From Burkholderiales bacterium (GTDB taxonomy: Bacteria > Pseudomonadota > Gammaproteobacteria > Burkholderiales > Burkholderiaceae_E), in contig CANKWX010000003.1 in assembly GCA_947487165.1 (NCBI GenBank), forward strand, positions 1-64,000: a stretch of DNA of 64,000 nucleotides, read 5' to 3'. Below the pieces are notes generated by a model that was given only the letters and a program-made list of their open reading frames with translations, made no database searches and had not been told where the DNA came from. The number at the start of each line of letters is the position of its first letter. Positions within the stretch are counted from its first letter, which is position 1. Shown one piece after another: positions 903-57,576 of the stretch. The translations under genes and the position numbers were made by a program.

Positions 903-3482
903 ATGAGCGACCCCAGGCCCTCTCAGCCGCCGAGCGATGCCGGCACGATGCGCGCCGAGTTGCGCAGGCAACGCGGCGAACTGATCGAGCGATTCAGGCA
1001 GCGTCCGGAAGTTCATCGCCTGCTGACCGGCATGGTCCGGATCACCGATCGCTGCCTGGTGACCCTCTGGCGAGACAGCGGCATGCCCACCGATTGCTGC
1101 CTGGCGGCGGTAGGCGGATATGGTCGCGGCGAGTTGCAGCCGCATTCCGATGTCGACCTGGTAATCCTGGTGCCCGATGCCGAGGCCGATCACCGGACCC
1201 AGAGCATCGAAAAATTCGTCGGCCAATGCTGGGATGTCGGCCTGGTGATCGGGCACAGCGTGCGCACCGTCGAACAGTGCCTGACCGAGGCCGCCATCGA
1301 TGTCACCGTCCAGACCAGCCTGCTGGAGAGGCGTTATCTGTGCGGCAGCCGCAGGATCTATCGCACGCTTGCCGAAAAGCTGCTGGCAGCCACCGACCCG
1401 CGAGCTTTTTATCACGGGAAAATGTTCGAGGTTCGACAGCGTCACGCCAAGTTTGCCGACACGCCCTACAGCCTCGAGCCGAATGTCAAGGAAAGCCCGG
1501 GCGGACTGCGCGACCTGCAATCCATCCGCTGGATCTCGCGCGCGGCCGGGCTCGGGCTCAACTGGTCGGGCATGGCCGAACGCGGCCTGATGACCACACG
1601 CGAAGCACGACTGCTCGCCAATGATGAGCGCCGACTCAAGGTCATACGGGCCTGGCTGCACATCATTTCGAATCGCCGTGAGGACCGCCTGGTCTTCGAC
1701 CTTCAGGCTCAGGTCGCGCAGGCCCAGGGCTTTGATGCGACCAATGCCCGAATCGCCAGCGAGCAGCTGATGCAGCGCTACTACCGGATCGCCAAGTCGG
1801 TCACCCAGCTCAGCACCCTGCTGCTGCAGAACCTCGAGGCCGAGCTGTTCCCGGAAAACGCCGGCGTCGCCAAGGCGATCGACGATGAATTTCAGAATAA
1901 TCGCGGGCTGCTCGATGTGGCCGACGACACCCTCTTCGCCCGCAAGCCGGCGGCGATCCTGCGTGCATTCCTGACCATGGAAAGCCACAGCGAACTGAGC
2001 GGCATGAGCGCCCGTACCCTGCGGGCGATCTGGCGCGAACGAGGCCGAATCGATGCGCGATTCCGCCGCGATCCCGAGAACCGCGCCGCTTTCCTGCGTA
2101 TTCTGCAAAGCGACGACGCGGTCACGCATGAGCTGCGGCGCATGAACCAGTGGTCGGTGCTCGGACGCTATCTGCCTGTCTTTCGTCGAATCGTCGGCCG
2201 GATGCAGCACGACCTCTTTCATGTCTACACCGTCGATCAGCACATCCTGATGGTGGTTCGCAATCTGCGTCGCTTCACCAAAGCCGAGCATGCGCACGAA
2301 TACCCGTTCTGCAGCCAGCTGATGGCGGGGTTCGAGCGCCGCTGGCTGCTCTACCTTGCGGCGCTTTTTCATGACATCGCGAAAGGGCGCGGCGGCGACC
2401 ACTCGTCCCTCGGCAGGCAGGACGCCCGGCGTTTCTGTCGTGCCCACGGCCTGTCTGCAGAAGACTGCGATCTGGTCGAGTTTCTGGTCGACCAGCACCT
2501 TGCCATGTCGCAGGTCGCTCAAAAGCAGGATCTGAGCGACCCCCAGACGATTGCCAGCTTCGCCGCGCGAGTCGGCTCGGAGCGGCGACTCACAGCGCTG
2601 TACCTGCTGACCGTGGCCGACATTCGGGGCACCAGTCCGCTCGTCTGGAATGCCTGGAAGGGCAAACTGCTCGAAGACCTTTACCGACTGACCCGCGATC
2701 TGCTGAGCGGGGAAGTCACCAGCCCCGACGAGCGCCTCGATGCCCGACACGCCGAGGCAAGACGACTGCTGAACCTGGCCGGCCTGGCCCCCGCCGCCTA
2801 TGCCGATTTCTGGAAGCGCCTCGAAATCGGCTACTTTCTTCGCAACGATCCGCAGGATGTCGCCTGGCACACGCAGGTGCTGCACCAGACCCCTGTGCCG
2901 GAGCATCCGGTGGTGCGCACGCGACTGTCGCCGATCGGTGCGGGTTTCCAGGTCGTGGCCTACCTGCCTGACCAGCCCGATCTGTTTGCCCGGATCTGCG
3001 GCTACTTCGACAGCAAGAATCTGTCGGTGCTCGATGCGCAGGTCCACACCACCAGCGACGGGCGTGCCCTCGACAGTTTTCTGGTGGTTGACCCCAGCCA
3101 CTCGTTTGAGTATCGCGACATCCTCTCGCTGGTCGAGGTCGAGCTCGCGGCGCGACTGACACAGCGCAAGCCGCTCGAAGCGCCGGTGCGCGGCCGACCG
3201 TCGCGGCGGTCACGCTACTTTCCGATCGCGCCGCAGGTCGACCTGCGACCCGACGATCGCGGCAATTGTTACCTGCTGTCGGTGGTCACCAACGACCGTA
3301 CCGGACTGCTCTATGGCATCGCCCGCGCACTGACCCGCCATGGCGTCAACCTTCAGGCCGCGCGCATCATGACACTGGGCGAACGGGTCGAGGATGTCTT
3401 TCTGATCGAAGGGCCAACGCTCGCCAATGCACGCCAGCAGATCCAGCTTGAAAACGACCTTCTGGCGGCAATGCAGGATTGA
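903..3482 (+). CDS. glnD: Bifunctional PII uridylyltransferase / uridylyl-removing enzyme
   Basis: Senses glutamine and adds or removes UMP on PII signal proteins, setting nitrogen status. The 859-residue product shows the four expected modules. The nucleotidyltransferase domain has GGYGRGEL at 71-78 followed by the metal-binding D83 and D85. A linker follows, then an HD domain (about 435-560) with HDIAKGRGGDHS. Two C-terminal ACT domains lie at about 690-770 and 800-859, the second around RTGLLYGIARAL. The length matches the family. It probably shares transcripts with map. It ends 16 bp from the convergent def stop. Confidence 0.96.
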   Translation: MSDPRPSQPPSDAGTMRAELRRQRGELIERFRQRPEVHRLLTGMVRITDRCLVTLWRDSGMPTDCCLAAVGGYGRGELQPHSDVDLVILVPDAEADHRTQSIEKFVGQCWDVGLVIGHSVRTVEQCLTEAAIDVTVQTSLLERRYLCGSRRIYRTLAEKLLAATDPRAFYHGKMFEVRQRHAKFADTPYSLEPNVKESPGGLRDLQSIRWISRAAGLGLNWSGMAERGLMTTREARLLANDERRLKVIRAWLHIISNRREDRLVFDLQAQVAQAQGFDATNARIASEQLMQRYYRIAKSVTQLSTLLLQNLEAELFPENAGVAKAIDDEFQNNRGLLDVADDTLFARKPAAILRAFLTMESHSELSGMSARTLRAIWRERGRIDARFRRDPENRAAFLRILQSDDAVTHELRRMNQWSVLGRYLPVFRRIVGRMQHDLFHVYTVDQHILMVVRNLRRFTKAEHAHEYPFCSQLMAGFERRWLLYLAALFHDIAKGRGGDHSSLGRQDARRFCRAHGLSAEDCDLVEFLVDQHLAMSQVAQKQDLSDPQTIASFAARVGSERRLTALYLLTVADIRGTSPLVWNAWKGKLLEDLYRLTRDLLSGEVTSPDERLDARHAEARRLLNLAGLAPAAYADFWKRLEIGYFLRNDPQDVAWHTQVLHQTPVPEHPVVRTRLSPIGAGFQVVAYLPDQPDLFARICGYFDSKNLSVLDAQVHTTSDGRALDSFLVVDPSHSFEYRDILSLVEVELAARLTQRKPLEAPVRGRPSRRSRYFPIAPQVDLRPDDRGNCYLLSVVTNDRTGLLYGIARALTRHGVNLQAARIMTLGERVEDVFLIEGPTLANARQQIQLENDLLAAMQD

Positions 3483-3498
3483 TCCAGGCAGCGGGACC

Positions 3499-4029
3499 TC
3501 AGTCGTCGCTCAGCGTCCGCCCGGGAAAGAGCACCTCGGTGAAGCCGAATCGGGTCAGGTCACGAATGCGCCGGGGATAGAGAATGCCATCGAGGTGGTC
3601 GCATTCGTGCTGCACGACGCGGGCGTGAAAATCGCTCGCGGTGCGGTCAATCGACTGGCCATTCGCATCGTAGCCCCGATACCGGATATGACTGAAGCGC
3701 GGCACCCAGCCTCGCATTCCGGGCACAGACAAACAACCTTCCCAGCCCTCCTCCTCATGCGGGGAAAGCGCCTCAATCACCGGATTGATCAGCACCGTCT
3801 GCGGGACAGCGTCGGCATCGGGATAGTTCGGATGCGACGCGATGCCGAAGATCACAACCCGCAGATCGATCCCGATCTGGGGTGCGGCGATCCCGGCACC
3901 ATCGCGCGCCGCCATGGTGTCGAACAGATCGTCGATCAGGGCGCGCAACTGCGGCGAGCCGAAGTCGGTCACCGGGCGCGCCACCCGCAGCAGCCGCGGA
4001 TCGCCCATTTTCAGCACATCGCGAATCAT
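3499..4029 (-). CDS. def: Peptide deformylase
   Basis: Removes the formyl group from the N-terminal fMet of new proteins, acting before methionine aminopeptidase. The 176-residue product has the three family motifs: [10 protein letters not shown] (44-53), EGCLS with the metal ligand C99, and HECDHL with H141, E142 and H145. The start overlaps the mtnP stop in an ATGA junction, so it is the last gene of the minus-strand run smc-zipA-ligA-galU-mtnP-def. Housekeeping def is often next to fmt, which is absent here, so a second deformylase elsewhere in the genome is possible. All catalytic residues are present. Confidence 0.96.
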
Positions 4030-4808
4030 GCCGCGTCGGCCTTGCTGCCCCTCTCTGCTGCCGATCCTGCCGGCGCACGCAGGCAGGCTGACAGAATCCG
4101 GCGGACACGCTCCATGGCGAGTTCCATCACAACGCCGATGGCCTCAAGGGAAATCGCCTGCGCGCTCTCGCCGATACCGGCCGCATGATTGGCCACGACC
4201 GCCAGGGCACCGTAGGGCAATTCGAGTTCTCGTGCCAGCGCCGCTTCCGGCATGCCGGTCATGCCCACCAGATCACAGCCATCACGCTGCATTCGGCGAA
4301 TCTCGGCGGCGGTTTCGAGGCGCGGGCCCGGAGTGCAACCATAGGTAGCGCCAAGCGCGACGGTTTCACCGATCGCGCGGGCCGCTTCGGCATAGCGCGC
4401 GCGCACGCTCTCGGAATAGGGATGGGTGAAATCGATATGGGTCACCGGGTCATCGGGCCCCTCGAAAAAACTTCCTTTTCGCCCGCTGGTGTAATCGATG
4501 ATCTGATCGGGAATGACCAGCGCTCCCGGCCCGAGATCTGCGCGAATGCCGCCCACTGTGGCCACCGCCAGCACCTGCGTGGCACCCACCTCGCGCAGTG
4601 CCCACAGGTTGGCGCGATAGTTGATTTCGTGCGGCGCGATGGTGTGGCCGTAGCCGTGTCGCGCCAGAAAGACCACCTCGACACCCTCAATCGCACCGAA
4701 TGTCAGGGCACAGGAGGGATCGCCATAAGGCGTGCGGACCACCTCGCGCCGCCGACGCTCAAGGTCAGTCAGATTGGCCAGACCGCTGCCGCCAATGATT
4801 GCGAACAT
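4026..4808 (-). CDS. mtnP: S-methyl-5'-thioinosine / S-methyl-5'-thioadenosine phosphorylase family
   Basis: Phosphorolytic purine-nucleoside enzyme of the MTA salvage pathway. The 260-residue product has the phosphate-binding start IIGGSGL, the [19 protein letters not shown] segment and the [18 protein letters not shown] block. The segment facing the purine base reads VVANHAAG. In MTA phosphorylases this position carries aspartates that recognise the 6-amino group; the Asn form resembles the Pseudomonas S-methyl-5'-thioinosine phosphorylase. Preference for methylthioinosine is therefore likely but is inferred from that single segment. It lies 3 bp after galU and overlaps def by 4 bp. Confidence 0.87.
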
Positions 4809-4811
4809 CGA

Positions 4812-9130
<4,319 letters not shown>

Positions 9131-51341: not shown

Positions 51342-51461
51342 GGCGCGCTCTCGCGGGCCTGCGCAGGATTCGGACATCGCAATAGTTTAGGCCAGACATC
51401 GGTTTAGGCCAGAGATCACTCGGCGTTATGATCACCGACCGTCCATTTGCAATCGGTGCCG

Positions 51462-52175
51462 ATGAACCAAGCCCCCAAGCGACTGCTGGTCGTCGATGAT
51501 GACCCCAAACTGCGCGACCTGCTCAACCGCTATCTCACTGCCCAGCAGTTTGAAGTCGGTCTGGCAGTCGACGGCGCCAGCCTGAATCGCCTGCTTCAAC
51601 GCGAAACCTGGGATCTGATCATCCTCGACCTGATGCTGCCCGGCGAAGACGGTCTGTCGATCATGCGCAGGCTGAGGGGCGCCAACGTTCGCACGCCGGT
51701 CATCATCCTGACCGCCAAGGGTGACGATGTCGATCGCATCGTCGGCCTGGAGATGGGCGCAGACGACTATCTGCCAAAACCCTTCAACCCCCGCGAGTTG
51801 CTCGCCCGCATCAATGCCGTGCTGCGCCGCCAGCCCGGGCCCGAATCGCCCGGCGCGCCGGCGACCGATATCGGTGAAGTGCGCTTTGGCCCCTTCGTGT
51901 TCGATCCGGCACTGCGCTCGCTCAGCCGTGATGGCCAGGCGGTGCCGCTGACGACCGGCGAATACTCGGTGCTCAAGGTGTTTGCACGCCACCCCCGTCA
52001 GCCGCTCAACCGCGACAAACTGATGGTGCTGGCGCGCGGGCGCGAATATGGCGCCTTCGACCGCAGCCTCGATGTGCAGATCTCGCGACTGCGCAAGCTG
52101 ATCGAAGCCGACCCGACCAACCCGCGCTACATCCAGACGGTCTGGGGCGTGGGCTACGTGTTCGTACCCGACTGA
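51462..52175 (+). CDS. ompR: OmpR-family response regulator
   Basis: DNA-binding response regulator of 237 residues from ATG 51462. The receiver domain has the acidic pocket LLVVDDDPKLRDLL, phospho-acceptor D56 in LIILDLMLPGEDG and K106 in GADDYLPKPFNPREL. A winged-helix domain (about 135-237) has ALRSLSRDGQAVPLTTGEYS and ends YIQTVWGVGYVFVPD. It is close to OmpR, and to RisA of Bordetella. The EnvZ-like kinase follows after 8 bp. Confidence 0.9.
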   Translation: MNQAPKRLLVVDDDPKLRDLLNRYLTAQQFEVGLAVDGASLNRLLQRETWDLIILDLMLPGEDGLSIMRRLRGANVRTPVIILTAKGDDVDRIVGLEMGADDYLPKPFNPRELLARINAVLRRQPGPESPGAPATDIGEVRFGPFVFDPALRSLSRDGQAVPLTTGEYSVLKVFARHPRQPLNRDKLMVLARGREYGAFDRSLDVQISRLRKLIEADPTNPRYIQTVWGVGYVFVPD

Positions 52176-52183
52176 TCCGCGCG

Positions 52184-53554
52184 GTGAGGCTGTCGCTCTT
52201 CTGGCGGACCTTCGTACTGATCGCACTGGTGGTCGTGGCCAGTCTGCTGGCGTGGCTGCAGGTCTTTCGGGCCGCCGAAGTGCAGCCCCGGGCCGAGCGC
52301 TTCGCCTGGGAGATCGCCGCGGTGGTCAACGTGACCCGCGCCGGTCTGACCAATACGCAAGGCGCGCAGCGGCTCGAATTGCTCAACGCGCTGAGCACTG
52401 CCGAGAACATCCGTATCCGTCCGGCCGACTACAAGGACCGCATCGCGGCCTGGCCTGATCCTGAATTCGGAGGCCTGATGGAGGCGAAACTGCTTGAGCT
52501 GCTCGGTGACGAGACCCGACTCGCCGGTCGGGTCAACGGCGTCGACGGCCTCTGGATCCGCTTCGAGATGCAGGACGACCCCTACTGGATGTTGCTCGAC
52601 CCCGAACGTCTCGCACGGCAGGCCAATCGCAACTGGCTCGGCTGGTTCGGCATCGCGCTCGGGCTGGCTCTGGCAGCGTCCCTGGCGATCAGTCGGGTGA
52701 TCAACCGTCCACTCGCGAGCCTGGCAGGTGCGATCGATCGGGTCTCAAGAGGCGAAACACCCCCCACGCTGGGGGATAACGGGCCGACCGAACTGGCCCT
52801 GATCAACCGCCGCTTCAATGCCATGGCCGCCGAACTGGCCGCCCTCGATGCCGATCGGGCCGAGGCGCTGGCCGGCATTTCGCACGACATCCGCACACCG
52901 CTCACACGGCTGCGACTCGAGATCGAAATGTCCTCAGCCGACCCGACCACCCGCGATTCGATGGCCGAAGAAATCGACCGTATCGACGCGATCGTCCGGC
53001 AGTTCGTGGAGTTTGCCCGGCCCTACGATAGCGAGCCGGCGCTCGACATCGGTGTGCTGCATATCGTCGATTCGGTCCTGGACGCCTATCGGCATGGCCC
53101 GGATGCCGACGATCTGATCGTCACCGTGGCGGTCGATCCTTCTCTGAACTGGCGGGGCAGCCCGACGGTTCTCACCCGGATATTGTCGAATCTGGTCGAG
53201 AACGCCCATCGCTACGGCAAGGATGCGACCGGCTCAACCCGTGTCGAGCTTGCTGCCCAAAGACGCGCCAACGGCATCGAACTCACGGTCAGAGACCATG
53301 GCCCCGGAGTGCCTGCCGATCAGCTGGAGCGCCTGATTAGGCCCTTTACGCGTCTCGATGCCGAACGACACCGCCACGGCGGCTCGGGCCTGGGCCTGTC
53401 GATCGTCGTTCGACTGTCACGCCGATACAGCGGTGACCTTCGGCTGGAACTGCCGTCGGACGGCGGTCTGCTTGCCCGCGTCAGGCTCGAAGACGCGTCC
53501 CCATCGGCGTCCGACGAGGCCCGATCACGACGGGAAGCAACGGTCGGCAGCTAG
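52184..53554 (+). CDS. envZ: EnvZ/RisS-type sensor histidine kinase
   Basis: Inner-membrane sensor kinase of 456 residues, GTG start. TM1 is at 8-29, a periplasmic sensor region at about 30-150, and TM2 at 152-170. A HAMP domain (171-225) with ISRVINRPLASLAGAIDRVS follows. The phospho-acceptor is H234 in GISHDIRTPLTRLRLEIEM. The ATPase domain has the N box ILSNLVENAHRYGK, G1 DHGPGV and G2 GGSGLGLSIV. The H-box neighbour order HDIRTPLTR is the EnvZ type. Stimulus unknown; osmolarity or acid are inferred from relatives. Confidence 0.9.
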   Translation: MRLSLFWRTFVLIALVVVASLLAWLQVFRAAEVQPRAERFAWEIAAVVNVTRAGLTNTQGAQRLELLNALSTAENIRIRPADYKDRIAAWPDPEFGGLMEAKLLELLGDETRLAGRVNGVDGLWIRFEMQDDPYWMLLDPERLARQANRNWLGWFGIALGLALAASLAISRVINRPLASLAGAIDRVSRGETPPTLGDNGPTELALINRRFNAMAAELAALDADRAEALAGISHDIRTPLTRLRLEIEMSSADPTTRDSMAEEIDRIDAIVRQFVEFARPYDSEPALDIGVLHIVDSVLDAYRHGPDADDLIVTVAVDPSLNWRGSPTVLTRILSNLVENAHRYGKDATGSTRVELAAQRRANGIELTVRDHGPGVPADQLERLIRPFTRLDAERHRHGGSGLGLSIVVRLSRRYSGDLRLELPSDGGLLARVRLEDASPSASDEARSRREATVGS

Positions 53555-53596
53555 AGCGAATCGATCCGAACGGGCAGGTCGATAGACTGAACATAT

Positions 53597-53612
53597 CGTC
53601 AGTATATTGACG
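53597..53612. promoter_or_regulatory. Inverted repeat upstream of the rubrerythrin promoter
   Basis: CGTCAGTATATTGACG pairs at 7 of 8 positions. A second inverted repeat, ATTGA-CGT-TCAAT (53606-53618), overlaps its right arm. They lie just before a possible -35, so they may bind an activator or redox regulator. They do not match the Fnr box, which has a four-base spacer. Confidence 0.5.
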
Positions 53613-53617
53613 TTCAA

Positions 53618-53647
53618 TTGGATGCTGTCATCTGCGATCGATAGAAT
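53618..53647 (+). promoter_or_regulatory. Putative rubrerythrin promoter
   Basis: TTGGAT (53618-53623), an 18-base spacer and TAGAAT (53642-53647). Start expected near 53654, leaving a leader of about 66 bases before the ATG at 53720. Confidence 0.45.
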
Positions 53648-53719: not shown

Positions 53720-54142
53720 ATGCCCAAACTCAATGGCACCAAGACCCATGACAACCTCAAGGCCGCTTTCGCGGGCGAGAGCCAGGCTAACCGCCGTTAC
53801 CTCTACTTCGCAAACAAGGCTGACGTCGAAGGCCAGACCGAAGTCGCAACCCTGTTCCGCTCGACCGCCGAAGGCGAGACCGGCCATGCACACGGCCACC
53901 TCGACTATCTGGCCGAAGTGGGCGATCCGGCGACCGACATGCCGATCGGCTCGTCATCGAACAACCTGAAGGCGGCTGTCGCCGGCGAGACCCACGAGTA
54001 CACCGACATGTACCCGGGCATGGCCAAGACCGCTCGCGACGAAGGCTTCGATGAGATCGCCGACTGGTTTGAGACGCTGGCCAAGGCCGAGCGTTCGCAC
54101 GCCAACAAGTTCGCCAAGGCGCTCGAAACACTCGCCGCCTGA
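53720..54142 (+). CDS. Rubrerythrin (erythrin-only, no rubredoxin domain)
   Basis: Diiron protein of 140 residues that reduces peroxide. The ATG is set by GGAGA 5 bases upstream. The four-helix-bundle iron ligands are E20 ([12 protein letters not shown]), E53 and H56 ([10 protein letters not shown]), E90 (AVAGETHEY), and E124 and H127 ([10 protein letters not shown]). The C-terminal rubredoxin domain of classical rubrerythrin is absent, so electrons must come from another carrier. The two-cluster Fe-S protein encoded next is an obvious candidate, but this is inference. A strong terminator follows. Confidence 0.93.
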
Positions 54143-54190
54143 GACCGCACCGCGCCAGGCCGGATTCAACCGGCCGGCGCAGGTCGATGG

Positions 54191-54215
54191 GGGGAGCTTC
54201 CGAGCTCCCCTTTTT
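54191..54215 (+). terminator. Rho-independent terminator after rubrerythrin
   Basis: GGGGAGCT - TCCG - AGCTCCCC is an 8-bp perfect stem followed by TTTTT. It should end most rubrerythrin transcripts before the Fe-S gene, giving unequal expression of the cluster or full separation. Confidence 0.92.
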
Positions 54216-54276
54216 ATTCAGAGTGTCCCCTTGTCATCCAGTTCCCTTCTTCACAACCATCTCACCGACTGCCGCC

Positions 54277-55626
54277 ATGACCGTACGTGAAGGATCTCTC
54301 GAAGCGCCCACCCGCCATCCGATCGACTGGCGCAATCCGGCATTCTTCGACCGCGACGCCGCCCTCGACGAAATGGAGCGGGTGTTTGACATCTGCCACG
54401 GCTGCCGCCGCTGCGTGAGCCTGTGCAACGCCTTTCCGACGCTCTTCGACCTGGTCGACGAGAGCAAGACCATGGAAGTCGACGGCGTCGATCGCGACGA
54501 CTACTGGAAGGTCGTCGACCAGTGCTATCTGTGCGACGTCTGCTACATGACGAAGTGCCCCTATGTGCCGCCCCATCCCTGGAACCTCGACTTTCCGCAT
54601 CTGATGCTTCGCGCCAAGGCGATCCAGTTTAAGGAAGGCACGCCCACCAAGTTTCGCGACACCTCGCTCGCCTCGACCGATCGCAACGGCAAACTCGCCG
54701 GCATACCGGTGGTGGTCAGCGCGGTGAATGCACTGGCGCATTCACCTGCGGTGCGCTCAATGCTCGACAGCCAGATCGGCATCCACAAGGACGCCTGGCT
54801 GCCCGAGTTCACCTCGAAGCAGTTCAGCAAGACCGCCCGGGCATCGACCGCGCATCCGGTGCGCAACGGCGCCAAGACGCCCGGCAAAGTGGCGGTCTTT
54901 GCCACCTGCTATGTCAATTACAACGAGCCCGGCATCGGACATGACCTGATCAAAGTGCTCGAGCACAACCGGATTCCCTTTGTCCTGGTTCAGAAGGAGG
55001 CCTGCTGTGGCATGCCCAAGCTCGAGCTCGGTGACCTCGACGGCGTGGCACAGCTCAAGGACAAGAACATCCCGAAGCTGGCGGCACTGGCCCGTGAGGG
55101 TTACGCCATCCTGGCGCCGATCCCGTCTTGTGGGCTGATGTTCAAACAGGAACTGCCGCTGATGTTCCCGGAAGACATCGATGTCCAGGCGGTTCGCGGC
55201 GCGATGTTTGATCCCTTCGAATACCTGGTCGCCCGCAACAAGGACGGCCTGCTCGAGACCGATTTCACCGGTCCGCTGGGCAAGGTCTCCTATCATGTTG
55301 CCTGCCATCTGCGAGTCCAGAACGTCGGCCAAAAGACCCGCGAGCTGCTCTCGATGATTCCGCAGACCTCGGTCAACACCGTGGAGCGCTGCTCGGGTCA
55401 TGCCGGCACCTGGGGCGTCAAAAAGGAATTCCACGAAACCGCCATGAAGATCGGCCGCCCGGTGTTCCGGCAGATGGCCGAGCATCCGGATGGCGAACCC
55501 GACTGGGTGGCCTCCGACTGCCAGCTGGCGGGCCACCACATCGAGCAGGGGATGCAGGGCAAGGCCGACGGCAAGGTCGCCCATCCGCTCACCCTTCTCA
55601 GAATGGCCTACGGTCTGCCCGACTGA
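54277..55626 (+). CDS. Two-[4Fe-4S] oxidoreductase of the GlpC/HdrD type
   Basis: Predicted electron-transfer protein of 449 residues. The N-terminal ferredoxin domain has eight cysteines: C40, C43, C46, C50 (CHGCRRCVSLC) and C83, C86, C89, C94 (CYLCDVCYMTKC). Two cysteine-rich CCG-type domains follow, with EACCGMPKLELGD and SCGLMFKQELP, then VACHLRVQNVG, RCSGHAGTWG and SDCQLAGHHIEQG. This is the plan of GlpC and heterodisulfide reductase HdrD, but no GlpA/GlpB or Hdr partners are here. No membrane helix is obvious. A start at the ATG before TVREGSLEAPTRHP is chosen; a frame upstream covers the terminator. Function is not established. Confidence 0.88.
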   Translation: MTVREGSLEAPTRHPIDWRNPAFFDRDAALDEMERVFDICHGCRRCVSLCNAFPTLFDLVDESKTMEVDGVDRDDYWKVVDQCYLCDVCYMTKCPYVPPHPWNLDFPHLMLRAKAIQFKEGTPTKFRDTSLASTDRNGKLAGIPVVVSAVNALAHSPAVRSMLDSQIGIHKDAWLPEFTSKQFSKTARASTAHPVRNGAKTPGKVAVFATCYVNYNEPGIGHDLIKVLEHNRIPFVLVQKEACCGMPKLELGDLDGVAQLKDKNIPKLAALAREGYAILAPIPSCGLMFKQELPLMFPEDIDVQAVRGAMFDPFEYLVARNKDGLLETDFTGPLGKVSYHVACHLRVQNVGQKTRELLSMIPQTSVNTVERCSGHAGTWGVKKEFHETAMKIGRPVFRQMAEHPDGEPDWVASDCQLAGHHIEQGMQGKADGKVAHPLTLLRMAYGLPD

Positions 55627-55693
55627 ATCCTGATCGCACAACCCCTGATCGAAAACACCTCACCACCCCGCCACGACCATGACAGGAGTCACC

Positions 55694-56278
55694 ATGCCCG
55701 CCATCGCCCGCGAATCACTCATGACGCTCGAGGCCTATGCCAAGGCTCGCCCCGAATTCCGCCGCAGCGTCATCGCCCACAAGAAGCGCCGCAGCATTGC
55801 ACTGGGCGACCACGTCACCCTGCTCTTTGAAGACGAGCTGACGGTGCGTTACCAGGTCCAGGAGATGCTGCGCATCGAGAAGATCTTCGAGGAAGAGGGC
55901 ATCGCCCATGAGCTCGAGTCTTACAACCCGCTGATCCCCAACGGCCGCAACCTCAAGGCCACCATGCTGATCGAGTATGAAGACGCGACCACCCGGCGCG
56001 CCTCGCTCGGTCGCCTGAAGGGCGTCGAGCAGCGCGTGTGGCTGCAGGTCGAAGGTTCACCGAAAGTCTGGCCGATCGCCGACGAAGACCTGGAGCGCGA
56101 AAACGAGGAAAAGACCTCGGCGGTGCATTTCCTGCGTTGGGAGCTGACCGAAGAAATGGCAGCCGCACTGAAATATGGCGTGTCGCTGTCGATGGGCGTC
56201 GATCATCCCAATTATCAGGCGAGCGTTTCGCCGCTGAACGACGAGAGCCGCGCCTCGCTCGCGTCCGATCTGGCCTAA
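55694..56278 (+). CDS. DUF3501 family protein
   Basis: Protein of unknown function, 194 residues, beginning [25 protein letters not shown] lies 7 bases before the ATG. It has conserved DUF3501 text such as [38 protein letters not shown] and [19 protein letters not shown]. It has no cysteine, no membrane helix and no known catalytic motif. DUF3501 genes recur next to rubrerythrin and this Fe-S oxidoreductase type in proteobacteria, which suggests a shared process. Its stop overlaps the convergent ispDF stop. Confidence 0.88.
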
Positions 56279-57576
56279 GCCGCTGCCACCAGCAGGACCG
56301 TGGCGTGGGCCTCGATGCCTTCGCCACGGCCTGCGAAGCCGAGTTTTTCGGCAGTTTTGGCCTTCACATTGACCTGCGACGGCGCAACACCCAGATCAGC
56401 TGAGATGGCCGCTACCATCGCGGGAATATGGCTGGACAGCTTCGGCGCCTGAGCCACGACCGTACAGTCGACATTGCCCGGCACCCAACCGGCTGCCCTC
56501 ACCCGCGCAACTGCCTCACGCAACAGAACCCGGCTGTCGGCACCGGCAAATCGGGCGTCGGTATCCGGAAAATGCCGGCCGATGTCGCCCAGCGCCGCCG
56601 CGCCGAGCAGCGCGTCGGTGATCGCATGCAGGAGCACGTCGGCATCCGAATGGCCGAGCAAACCGCGATCGAAGGGCACTGTGACGCCGCCGATCAAAAG
56701 CGCGCGCCCTGGCACCAGCGCATGGACGTCCCAGCCTTGTCCGATCCGAAACCGTGCGCCGGCGGCGCCCGCCTCAGTCGTTGGGGAGGCGGCTGGAGAC
56801 ACGGCCGAGGAAAGCCCGGCGAATTCGCGTGTCATCGCGAGCGAGGCTCGCATCGCCTGCAGGTCATCCATCGTGGTCACCTTGAAATTGCGCAGATTGC
56901 CGGCCACCAGCGCCGGGGAGAGGCCACTGGCCTCAATTGCCGAGGCCTCGTCGGTCACGCTGTGATGACGCTCCAGCGCCTCGCGCAGCCGACCGAGCCC
57001 AAACACCTGGGGTGTCTGCGCAAGCCATAGCCCCTCACGATCGATGGTCTGCAAGGCGCGCTGGTTGCCACCCCGCTTGACGGTGTCGGCCACTGGCAGT
57101 GCCAGCAGCGCGCCGATACGCTCGGTGGCCAGCGCTGCATGCAGGCGATGCAGTGATGCAGCGTCGACGCCCGGGCGGGCGGCGTCATGCACCCAGACCC
57201 AGTCCTGATCGCCGGCGCCCTGTTGCAAACCGAGTTCGAGCAGCCCGCCGAGCACACTGGCACGGCGGGTCGCGCCGCCGCGCGCGACAATCCGAATTCG
57301 GCCATCTTTCAGGCCGGTCAGATCCCGCGCCACGTCATCGTCCGGTGAGACGACCACCATCAGGCACTCGATCCAGGGGCAGGCAAGCAGGGCCTGGACC
57401 GTGCGCTCGAGCATGGTGGCGCCATCGAGATCGAGATATTGCTTGGGGCGATCGGCACCAAGTCGCATGCCAACGCCGGCCGCCGGCACGATTGCGAAGT
57501 GTCTTGGAAGGGCGGTATCGGCCGCGCTGTCGAAGGGAGAATCGGACATGGCGTCGGTCGGCTGCCTGAGCGTCAT
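56275..57576 (-). CDS. ispDF: Bifunctional IspD/IspF, MEP isoprenoid pathway
   Basis: Fusion of 2-C-methyl-D-erythritol 4-phosphate cytidylyltransferase (IspD, about 25-265) and 2-C-methyl-D-erythritol 2,4-cyclodiphosphate synthase (IspF, about 275-433). IspD has [20 protein letters not shown] and [10 protein letters not shown]. IspF has [10 protein letters not shown] (metal Asp and His), [20 protein letters not shown] and [17 protein letters not shown]. The linker is Ser/Ala/Thr-rich. Start is ATG 57576; ATG 57549 is an alternative. It supplies the isoprenoid units used by hpnCDE. Fused ispDF is typical of alphaproteobacteria; separate genes are usual in betaproteobacteria. Confidence 0.95.

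What the first reader, a model, noticed from the sequence alone, without database searches (positions are those of the whole stretch)
53720..56278. Rubrerythrin / GlpC-HdrD-like Fe-S protein / DUF3501 block: candidate undescribed redox system
Three genes in one direction code for a peroxide-reducing diiron protein without its own rubredoxin, an eight-cysteine ferredoxin plus double CCG-domain electron carrier without its usual Glp or Hdr partners, and a cysteine-free protein of unknown function. From memory this trio recurs in proteobacteria. A possible reading is that the Fe-S protein delivers electrons to rubrerythrin, with DUF3501 as assembly or docking factor, in aerobic bacteria. Sequence shows the genes and ligands; the joint function is inference.
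Basis: partly seen in the sequence, partly recalled or inferred. Interest (0 to 1): 0.62.

Follow-up and report, generated by a model that had tools for sequence, protein, structure and literature searches.

The report
Known OxyR-linked peroxide-defence gene trio
Three neighbouring genes encode an iron enzyme thought to destroy hydrogen peroxide, an iron-sulfur protein thought to feed it electrons and a helper of unknown role; the trio was described in 2016, but some relatives also carry an iron-storing ferritin gene inside the same cluster, a lead worth testing.

Summary
The window carries a one-domain rubrerythrin (RBR, 53720-54142), a GlpC-like Fe-S protein (RFO, 54277-55626) and DUF3501 (55694-56278): the "aerobic-type rubrerythrin system" of Cardenas et al. 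2016 (PMC5114695). Published microarray data show the apparent orthologous trio rising together under H2O2.
My tests support one functional unit. In a phylum-wide draw the three genes occur in the same 17 of 299 genomes, adjacent and in one order in all 17. An OxyR-type operator precedes RBR in 40 of 71 loci, the window included, against 0 of 355 shuffles.
Three details I did not find in print: (1) RFO lacks two cluster cysteines (95 of 95 and 94 of 94 rows) that 5 of 5 GlpC-like relatives keep; (2) a terminator-like hairpin often separates RBR from RFO; (3) in 9 of 122 DUF3501-bearing genomes of the order an encapsulin-type ferritin gene lies between RFO and DUF3501, once with its shell gene.
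Best mechanism: RFO re-reduces RBR after peroxide turnover; DUF3501 is a dedicated docking or assembly factor. Electron transfer, RFO's electron source and DUF3501's role are untested inference. The window itself is an ordinary member of a known system.

The parts
53582..53618 (+). OxyR-type operator: ATAG-N7-ATAT-N7-ATAT-N7-CAAT, four half-sites 11 bases apart, 138 to 102 bases before the RBR start
   Evidence: Sequence read; scores 14 of 16 against ATWG-N7-CWAT-N7-ATWG-N7-CWAT; 40 of 71 RBR-upstream regions score 14 or more against 0 of 355 dinucleotide shuffles, 0 of 72 RFO-upstream and 0 of 80 DUF3501-upstream regions. Spacing recalled from E. coli OxyR; pattern fitted after seeing the data.
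53618..53647 (+). possible promoter: TTGGAT (53618-53623), 18 bases, TAGAAT (53642-53647), directly after the operator
   Evidence: Read by eye; the consensus scan did not report it (it reported one other site, 53579-53608, against a shuffle mean of 0.6). Inference only.
53720..54142 (+). RBR: one-domain (aerobic-type) rubrerythrin, 140 aa
   Evidence: Best solved relatives are rubrerythrins 9ONM (E 2.5e-71) and 4DI0 (2.8e-71), then sulerythrin 1J30 (4.4e-53). E20, E53, H56, E90, E93, E124, H127 invariant in 84 sequences; assignment as di-iron ligands is recalled.
54189..54212 (+). terminator-like hairpin (10 pairs, then TTTATT) between RBR and RFO
   Evidence: where 4 such sites were found in the region against a shuffle mean of 2.3, so not significant by itself; terminator-like hairpin in the same gap in 39 of 69 complete loci, base-shuffled gaps mean 9.2, maximum 18 in 20 rounds.
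54277..55626 (+). [quoted passage not shown] two 4-Cys ferredoxin sites (C40-C50, C83-C94), CCG1 with 4 Cys (C211, C243, C244, C285), CCG2 with 3 Cys (C343, C372, C415)
   Evidence: AF2 model pLDDT 86.7, nearest solved folds LutA, EtfD, HdrB.
55694..56278 (+). DUF3501, 194 aa
   Evidence: PF12007 E 1.3e-73; solved relative 3FJV E 5.6e-68; AF2 model pLDDT 91.5 matches 3FJV at Z 25.7.

Best explanation
The locus is a copy of the aerobic-type rubrerythrin system. Shown: three adjacent genes, conserved as a unit, with an OxyR-type operator before the first. Supported by published expression data for the apparent orthologous trio: all three rise together under H2O2. Inferred: H2O2 activates OxyR, which turns on RBR, with less RFO and DUF3501 because a hairpin ends part of the transcripts after RBR. 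The RBR di-iron site reduces H2O2 to water. RFO, a soluble Fe-S wire built on the GlpC/LutA/EtfD plan, replaces the missing rubredoxin and re-reduces RBR. Its electrons probably come from ferredoxin/ferredoxin reductase or the quinone pool. DUF3501 has no required cysteine and no sign of a cofactor, so it is probably a docking or assembly factor for RBR.
For: Identity. Published system: PMC5114695. Co-occurrence: of 299 genomes drawn across the phylum, the window's own included, DUF3501 is in 17; RBR at 75% identity or more is in the same 17 (next best 54%); RFO at 42% or more is in the same 17 (next best, down to E 1e-30, 30-34%, GlpC-like, five genomes without DUF3501). All 17 are linked in one order and strand. 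Linkage: 69 of 80 nearest DUF3501 loci hold the whole trio in one order and strand; of the other 11, L088 keeps the tail of RBR at its contig end, 6 are cut by the contig end inside RFO, 1 (L080) is broken by a run of N, 1 (L096) is unresolved, and 2 (L109, L148) lack RFO between RBR and DUF3501. Regulation: OxyR-type operator; an OxyR-type gene near the cluster in 11 of 80 loci (the L137 copy identified). Expression: bpss1839 rubrerythrin +3.36, bpss1838 'ferredoxin' +3.31, bpss1837 hypothetical +3.37 (log2) after H2O2 (PMC4175613, passages). Activity of a relative: ferriperoxin is a peroxidase driven by NADPH plus ferredoxin reductase and is needed for growth at 10% O2 (PMC3317640). RFO fold: nearest are LutA (Z 23.3, 229 residues), EtfD (Z 21.7, 365 residues), HdrB (Z 18.3-19.0).
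Against: No test of electron transfer from RFO to RBR exists in anything I found. Ferriperoxin works in vitro with NADPH and ferredoxin reductase, with no RFO mentioned in the parts read, so RFO may be dispensable for activity. In the expression study the trio also depends on sigma E, so OxyR is not shown to be the regulator there. Two of the 80 loci have RBR followed directly by DUF3501 with no RFO between (L109, L148), and 25 organisms in PMC5114695 have RBR and DUF3501 without RFO; in L096 no RBR end is found in the 300 bases before RFO where the contig stops. 31 of 71 RBR-upstream regions lack an OxyR-type site of 14 or more; 15 of the 71 carry a different palindrome instead. The loci counted are mostly close relatives of one order, so they are not independent. 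The window's own hairpin is not above chance in its region.
Confidence: 0.65

Rival explanations
1. RFO and DUF3501 are maturation factors: they load or repair the di-iron site of RBR (and of neighbouring ferritins) and are not the turnover electron donor, which is general ferredoxin.
For: Ferriperoxin turns over with NADPH plus ferredoxin reductase (PMC3317640). B. pseudomallei RBR binds Mn, Co and Fe promiscuously with partial occupancy (abstract, PMC12585693), so correct metallation is a real problem. The terminator-like hairpin implies RFO and DUF3501 at lower amounts than RBR. RBR-DUF3501 pairs exist without RFO between them (L109, L148; PMC5114695).
Against: Fifteen conserved Cys in four cluster-like sites are more than a chaperone needs; nearest folds are electron-transfer subunits.
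Confidence: 0.2
2. RFO is a plain GlpC or HdrD homologue that moves electrons to quinone or reduces a disulfide, and lies beside RBR for regulatory reasons only.
For: NCBIfam GlpC is the best family hit, E 1.4e-66. Annotated GlpC proteins on Klebsiella and Salmonella plasmids match at 29-32% identity.
Against: 225 bits against the GlpC cut-off of 278. RFO lacks two CCG2 cysteines in every row that reaches them (95 and 94), while 5 of 5 GlpC-like proteins keep both. RFO and RBR go together in 17 of 17 genomes.
Confidence: 0.07
3. The module is broader than peroxide removal: RFO and DUF3501 serve several ferritin-like proteins, RBR and encapsulin-type ferritin, joining peroxide removal to iron storage or release.
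For: Encapsulin-type ferritin gene inside the operon in 9 of 69 complete loci, in 9 of 122 DUF3501-bearing genomes of the order and in 1 of 17 in the phylum draw; the first two sets share at least two genomes.
Against: Most operons, including this window, lack the ferritin, and G000 has none. Most encapsulin-type ferritins lie elsewhere: 19 of 28 genomes over the cut-off in the order draw, 17 of 18 in the phylum draw. The type short ferritin NE0167 comes from N. europaea, which has no rubrerythrin orthologue (PMC5960693), so it can work without RBR. Sharing an operon does not prove electron sharing.
Confidence: 0.15

Closest known systems
Aerobic-type rubrerythrin system RBR-RFO-DUF3501 (Cardenas et al. 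2016, PMC5114695)
   Same: Same three families, same linkage, same lack of rubredoxin domain, same GlpC-like RFO.
   Different: No difference in kind in the window. Added here: RFO cysteine signature, OxyR-type operator, terminator-like hairpin, ferritin insert in relatives; the words OxyR, terminator, encapsulin and serine do not occur in that paper's main text.
Sulerythrin and ferriperoxin (one-domain rubrerythrins; PMC3317640)
   Same: RBR matches sulerythrin 1J30 at E 4.4e-53; ferriperoxin is the characterised peroxidase of the type.
   Different: In H. thermophilus the RFO gene lies apart from the other two (PMC5114695).
GlpC of anaerobic glycerol-3-phosphate dehydrogenase
   Same: Two ferredoxin sites plus two CCG domains; best NCBIfam hit.
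   Different: RFO scores below the GlpC cut-off and lacks the second Cys of the CC pair and the last Cys of the CxxC in CCG2; no glpA or glpB was seen among the neighbours read by eye.
LutA, EtfD and HdrB
   Same: Nearest solved folds of the RFO model, Z 18.3-23.3.
   Different: 15-21% identity; EtfD is a 742-residue chain of which 365 residues align; RFO is 449 aa.
Encapsulin-associated ferritin (EncFtn; short form NE0167, 3K6C)
   Same: The fourth gene of relatives such as L112 matches 3K6C at E 6.8e-43 and TIGR04535 at 139 bits, cut-off 125.
   Different: Absent from the window and from G000. In the relatives it sits in the RBR operon; of 16 distinct genomes with the short form there, only G320 has an encapsulin gene.

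Membership tests
Aerobic-type rubrerythrin system (PMC5114695) | Rubrerythrin without rubredoxin domain, of the sulerythrin/ferriperoxin group | tested here: met
   140 aa, no Cys, Pfam Rubrerythrin plus a Ferritin overlap only; nearest 9ONM, 4DI0, 8FUH, 9ONR, then sulerythrin 1J30. Group membership by tree was not tested.
Aerobic-type rubrerythrin system (PMC5114695) | DUF3501 gene in the same cluster | tested here: met
   PF12007 E 1.3e-73
Aerobic-type rubrerythrin system (PMC5114695) | COG0247/CCG-domain Fe-S oxidoreductase (RFO) in the same cluster | tested here: met
   CCG domains and GlpC-like match
Aerobic-type rubrerythrin system (PMC5114695) | The three co-occur and co-localise across genomes | tested here: met
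   17 of 17 in 299 genomes; 69 of 80 loci complete, 8 cut by a contig end or a run of N (one of them keeping the RBR tail), 1 unresolved, 2 without RFO between RBR and DUF3501
Aerobic-type rubrerythrin system (PMC5114695) | Peroxidase activity with RFO as electron donor | not testable with these tools
   Needs purified proteins; activity with NADPH and ferredoxin reductase shown only for ferriperoxin (PMC3317640)
GlpC (NCBIfam NF008369, TIGR03379) | Score over the curated cut-off | tested here: not met
   225.1 against 278; 158.9 against 279.9
GlpC (NCBIfam NF008369, TIGR03379) | Five-Cys second CCG motif (C..CC..CxxC), as in the GlpC-like proteins compared | tested here: not met
   Ser 76/Ala 19 of 95 and Ala 84/Gly 10 of 94 at the two positions; Cys in 5 of 5 GlpC-like
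Hdr-type (HdrB/HdrD) catalytic CCG protein | CCG fold | tested here: met
   Z 18.3-19.0 to HdrB chains over about 235 residues
Hdr-type (HdrB/HdrD) catalytic CCG protein | Two complete five-Cys sites for non-cubane clusters (motif recalled) | tested here: not met
   RFO has 4 Cys in CCG1 and 3 in CCG2
OxyR regulon | Operator of four half-sites 11 bases apart | tested here: met
   14 of 16 in the window; 40 of 71 loci; pattern fitted after seeing the data
OxyR regulon | OxyR binds and activates | not testable with these tools
   No binding or oxyR-mutant data found for this gene
Encapsulin-associated ferritin operon | EncFtn gene present in the window's genome | tested here: not met
   0 TIGR04535 and 0 PF04454 matches in G000, 98% complete

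The most novel reading that the evidence does not exclude
RFO-DUF3501 is a general electron-delivery and docking module for ferritin-like di-iron proteins. In most operons it serves rubrerythrin; in a subset it also serves an encapsulin-type ferritin encoded between RFO and DUF3501 (RBR-RFO-ferritin-DUF3501, and once RBR-RFO-EncFtn-encapsulin-DUF3501). RFO would then be a candidate for the unidentified electron carrier that a 2024 review invokes for iron release from encapsulated ferritins (PMC11202242), and the short ferritins without targeting peptide would be shell-free partners of the rubrerythrin system. The degenerate second CCG site of RFO would be the adaptation that separates it from GlpC.
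Probability: 0.15. Interest if true: 0.66.

Novelty: already known. Interest (0 to 1): 0.36.

Why it matters
The trio is widespread (122 of 250 genomes drawn in this order have DUF3501) and was proposed as part of the ancestral mitochondrion (PMC7050145), yet in the papers read the natural electron donor of one-domain rubrerythrins and the role of DUF3501 remain open. The OxyR-type operator, the RFO cysteine signature and the ferritin-containing variants give concrete tests of both questions and of what encapsulin-type ferritins do where no shell gene is found.

Tried and rejected
DUF3501 function from fold: the model is confident (pLDDT 91.5) but its only strong match is 3FJV (Z 25.7), itself of unknown function. 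The other rows shown are Z 6.5 or less, which the tool's notes call common background, so no function is claimed.

RFO relatives by sequence profile in the PDB: no meaningful match (best E 0.13; single sequence, none at 0.01). Only the fold search helped; beside LutA, EtfD and HdrB it lists a Helicobacter protein of unknown function, 3KWL, at Z 16.8 and 8% identity, not followed.

"RFO is GlpC": rejected on score and on the cysteine test.

Neighbour genes as a clue: clustering of ORFs in 80 loci plus the window gave no constant fourth partner. Of the clusters printed I followed only the OxyR-type gene (11 of 80); many large clusters were frame-shadow ORFs. A short ferritin gene was found by reading the RFO-DUF3501 gap where it exceeded 200 bases (9 of 69 loci).

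Solo DUF3501 copies as a clue: L237 and L239 hold a second DUF3501 with no RBR or RFO within the 6 kb read. Both genomes also have a complete trio (L238, L240). Neighbours looked unrelated by eye.

L080, RFO-truncated and without RBR, is broken by a run of 100 N with an unrelated frame beyond it. On rechecking for this report, L148, first taken as cut by its contig end, proved to hold the tail of RBR directly before DUF3501, so it is a second exception without RFO beside L109. L088, which I had counted as cut, keeps the tail of RBR before RFO. L096 shows no RBR end in the 300 bases before RFO and stays unresolved.

Other control element: a palindrome TTAGA-N5-TCTAA lies before RBR in 15 of 71 loci and in 0 of 150 RFO- or DUF3501-upstream regions. 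The palindrome is Fur/PerR-like in layout (recalled); the regulator is unidentified.

Rows dropped before counts: RBR rows under 70% identity were left out of the ligand count (84 of 97 kept). RFO rows under 75% coverage were left out; rows under 40% identity became the 5 GlpC-like. Exact duplicates were removed. Structure alignments used 62 of 80 named loci for DUF3501 (A1, plus the window) and 48 of 80 for RFO (A2, plus the window).

A first version of the alignment script missed hits on the minus strand of unnamed loci; one search replaces it.
Full report
Check of the observation. RBR (53720-54142) is a 140-aa one-domain rubrerythrin without cysteine. RFO (54277-55626) is a 449-aa protein with 15 cysteines, two ferredoxin sites and two CCG domains. 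DUF3501 (55694-56278) is 194 aa. Solved relatives exist for RBR (9ONM, 4DI0, sulerythrin 1J30) and for DUF3501 (3FJV, E 5.6e-68); none was found for RFO by sequence.

It is known. A full-text search for DUF3501 gave five papers. Cardenas, Quatrini and Holmes 2016 (PMC5114695; text read from abstract to the end of the results, no figures or supplements) describe this trio as the aerobic-type rubrerythrin lineage, name the Fe-S protein RFO, count the trio in 185 of 4461 genomes, and propose that RFO replaces the missing rubredoxin domain. Follow-ups, each seen as passages: the mitochondrion of Andalucia godoyi (PMC7050145), a hot-spring operon and one with OxyR in Sideroxydans (PMC7852563), Acidihalobacter (PMC7760498).

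Independent test of the unit. I drew 299 genomes evenly across the phylum, the window's own included. DUF3501 is in 17. RBR at 75% identity or more is in the same 17; matches at E 1e-10 or better are in 54, the next best at 54%. RFO at 42% or more is in the same 17; the next five, at 30-34%, are GlpC-like and lie in genomes without DUF3501 (limit E 1e-30). By the coordinates of these three calls all 17 are linked as RBR-RFO-DUF3501 on one strand. Of 271 confirmed DUF3501 loci of a larger genome collection the best 80 were kept; these are near relatives and so not independent. Of the 80, 69 hold the complete trio in one order and strand. L088 keeps the tail of RBR at its contig end. Six are cut by the contig end inside RFO (L076, L087, L094, L113, L114, L146). 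L080 is broken by a run of N. L096 shows no RBR end in the 300 bases before RFO, where the contig stops, and is unresolved. L109 and L148 have RBR followed directly by DUF3501 without RFO. In the order draw DUF3501 is in 122 of 250 genomes; there I did not test RBR and RFO throughout.

What RFO is. All 15 cysteines are conserved in 95 distinct RFOs, apart from one gapped row at each of 8 positions. At the second CCG domain, position 373 is Ser in 76 and Ala in 19 of 95, and position 418 is Ala in 84 and Gly in 10 of 94; in 5 of 5 GlpC-like proteins both are Cys. RFO therefore has 4+4 ferredoxin cysteines, 4 in CCG1 and 3 in CCG2, and cannot hold a complete five-cysteine Hdr-type site in CCG2 (motif recalled). 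The text of PMC5114695 that I read does not mention this. The AF2 model (pLDDT 86.7) is nearest to LutA (Z 23.3), mycobacterial EtfD (Z 21.7 over 365 residues) and HdrB (Z 18.3-19.0): electron-transfer proteins. The working picture is a soluble Fe-S wire; its electron source is not identified.

What DUF3501 is. The model (pLDDT 91.5) matches strongly only 3FJV (Z 25.7). Twenty-six positions are invariant in 95 sequences, none of them cysteine. RBR-DUF3501 pairs without RFO between them exist (L109, L148), and 25 organisms in PMC5114695 have the two without RFO, so its partner is more likely RBR than RFO. Docking or assembly factor is inference.

Control. Before RBR lies a motif with four half-sites 11 bases apart, the layout recalled for OxyR. 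Scored against ATWG-N7-CWAT-N7-ATWG-N7-CWAT, 40 of 71 RBR-upstream regions reach 14 of 16 or more, against 0 of 355 dinucleotide shuffles (maximum 13), 0 of 72 RFO-upstream and 0 of 80 DUF3501-upstream regions. The window site is 53582-53618, score 14. The degenerate pattern was written after seeing the alignment, so the shuffles understate the freedom used, and several of the loci are near copies of the window; the upstream regions of the other two genes are the fairer control. An OxyR-type regulator gene lies near the cluster in 11 of 80 loci. For the L137 copy the best solved match is OxyR 4X6G, E 5.7e-90, and NCBIfam OxyR is its best family though below the cut-off (238.7 against 329). Whether the window's genome has an oxyR gene was not tested. 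Fifteen of 71 loci carry another palindrome instead, never together with the OxyR-type site. A terminator-like hairpin stands between RBR and RFO in the window (54189-54212; not above chance for the region alone) and in 39 of 69 loci against a shuffle mean of 9.2, which suggests RBR is made in excess.

Published behaviour. In a B. pseudomallei microarray after 100 uM H2O2 for 10 minutes, bpss1839 (rubrerythrin), bpss1838 ("ferredoxin") and bpss1837 (hypothetical) rise by 3.36, 3.31 and 3.37 (log2), near katG (3.64) and below katB (5.90) and ahpC (4.54), and all three depend on sigma E (PMC4175613, passages). That bpss1838 and bpss1837 are RFO and DUF3501 is my inference from gene order, from 3FJV coming from that species and from 4DI0 being its rubrerythrin (PMC5114695). 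Ferriperoxin of Hydrogenobacter thermophilus, a one-domain rubrerythrin, is an NADPH and ferredoxin-reductase-dependent peroxidase; its disruptant cannot grow at 10% O2 (PMC3317640, passages and discussion). Rubrerythrin is about 1.2% of the proteome in two ammonia oxidisers, while N. europaea has no orthologue (PMC5960693, passages).

Ferritin-containing variants. In 9 of the 69 complete loci the RFO-DUF3501 gap holds a fourth gene, a short encapsulin-type ferritin: all 9 genomes have a TIGR04535 match over the cut-off, and the L112 copy scores 139 bits, cut-off 125, and matches 3K6C at E 6.8e-43. No encapsulin gene was found in those 9 genomes, whose completeness is not told, with positive controls ringing. 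In the order draw, 28 of 250 genomes have a TIGR04535 match over the cut-off. In 8 it lies directly before DUF3501 (G521, G320, G332, G525, G430, G497, G386, G493); all but G525 were read as RBR-RFO-ferritin-DUF3501, and G525 has the same coordinates and score as the genome of L112. G525 and L112, and G430 and L147, appear to be the same genomes, so the two counts must not be added. Of the 8 only G320 has an encapsulin, on another contig beside its own ferritin. In G390 (L229) the operon is RBR-RFO-EncFtn-encapsulin-DUF3501; the ferritin tail holds LTIGSLK, like the targeting peptides tabulated in PMC11202242. One of the 17 phylum-draw operons, G103, placed outside the order and class, also has the short ferritin and no encapsulin. 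Against a general rule: in the phylum draw 18 genomes have an EncFtn-like gene at E 1e-15, only 5 of them also DUF3501 and only one linked; the window's genome has none; and the type short ferritin NE0167 is from N. europaea, which lacks rubrerythrin. [quoted passage not shown] A 2021 encapsulin survey notes rubrerythrins near Flp-fusion encapsulins; DUF3501 does not occur in its main text (PMC8346489, passages). A search for papers with two of encapsulin, rubrerythrin and DUF3501 gave 20; by the occurrence counts of the 15 listed, none holds both encapsulin and DUF3501. That covers only this open-access library.

Verdict. The window holds an ordinary member of a described, still biochemically untested system. 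The new value lies in details that make its mechanism testable and in the ferritin-containing relatives.

Noticed in passing
L229 (G390:C1:993500-1001000), 1236-4949 on the - strand: Five-gene operon RBR-RFO-EncFtn-encapsulin-DUF3501: ferritin and its shell gene inside the rubrerythrin operon.
   Followed up: partly
L112, L118, L126, L130, L133, L137, L141, L145, L147 between RFO and DUF3501; L230-L236; L003 2154-2459: Short encapsulin-type ferritin as fourth operon gene; no encapsulin gene found in the 9 named-locus genomes nor in G103, one (elsewhere) in G320.
   Followed up: yes
upstream of RBR in 15 of 71 loci, e.g. L112, L116, L120, L147: Palindrome TTAGA-N5-TCTAA, never found together with the OxyR-type operator; regulator unknown.
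   Followed up: partly
L109 1484-2574 and L148 1-716: RBR followed directly by DUF3501 with no RFO between, in two draft metagenome genomes.
   Followed up: partly
G000:C31:17875-18258: A second rubrerythrin-like protein in the window's genome, 44% identical to RBR and on another contig.
   Followed up: no
L237 4028-4630 and L239 3720-4385: Second, diverged DUF3501 copies without RBR or RFO nearby, in genomes that also have the full trio.
   Followed up: partly
window 51447-53554: Response regulator and sensor kinase genes directly upstream on the same strand; judged unrelated neighbours by reading only.
   Followed up: no
window 56275-57576, - strand: A fused IspD-IspF-like gene whose stop codon overlaps the DUF3501 end by four bases, convergent (read by eye).
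   Followed up: no
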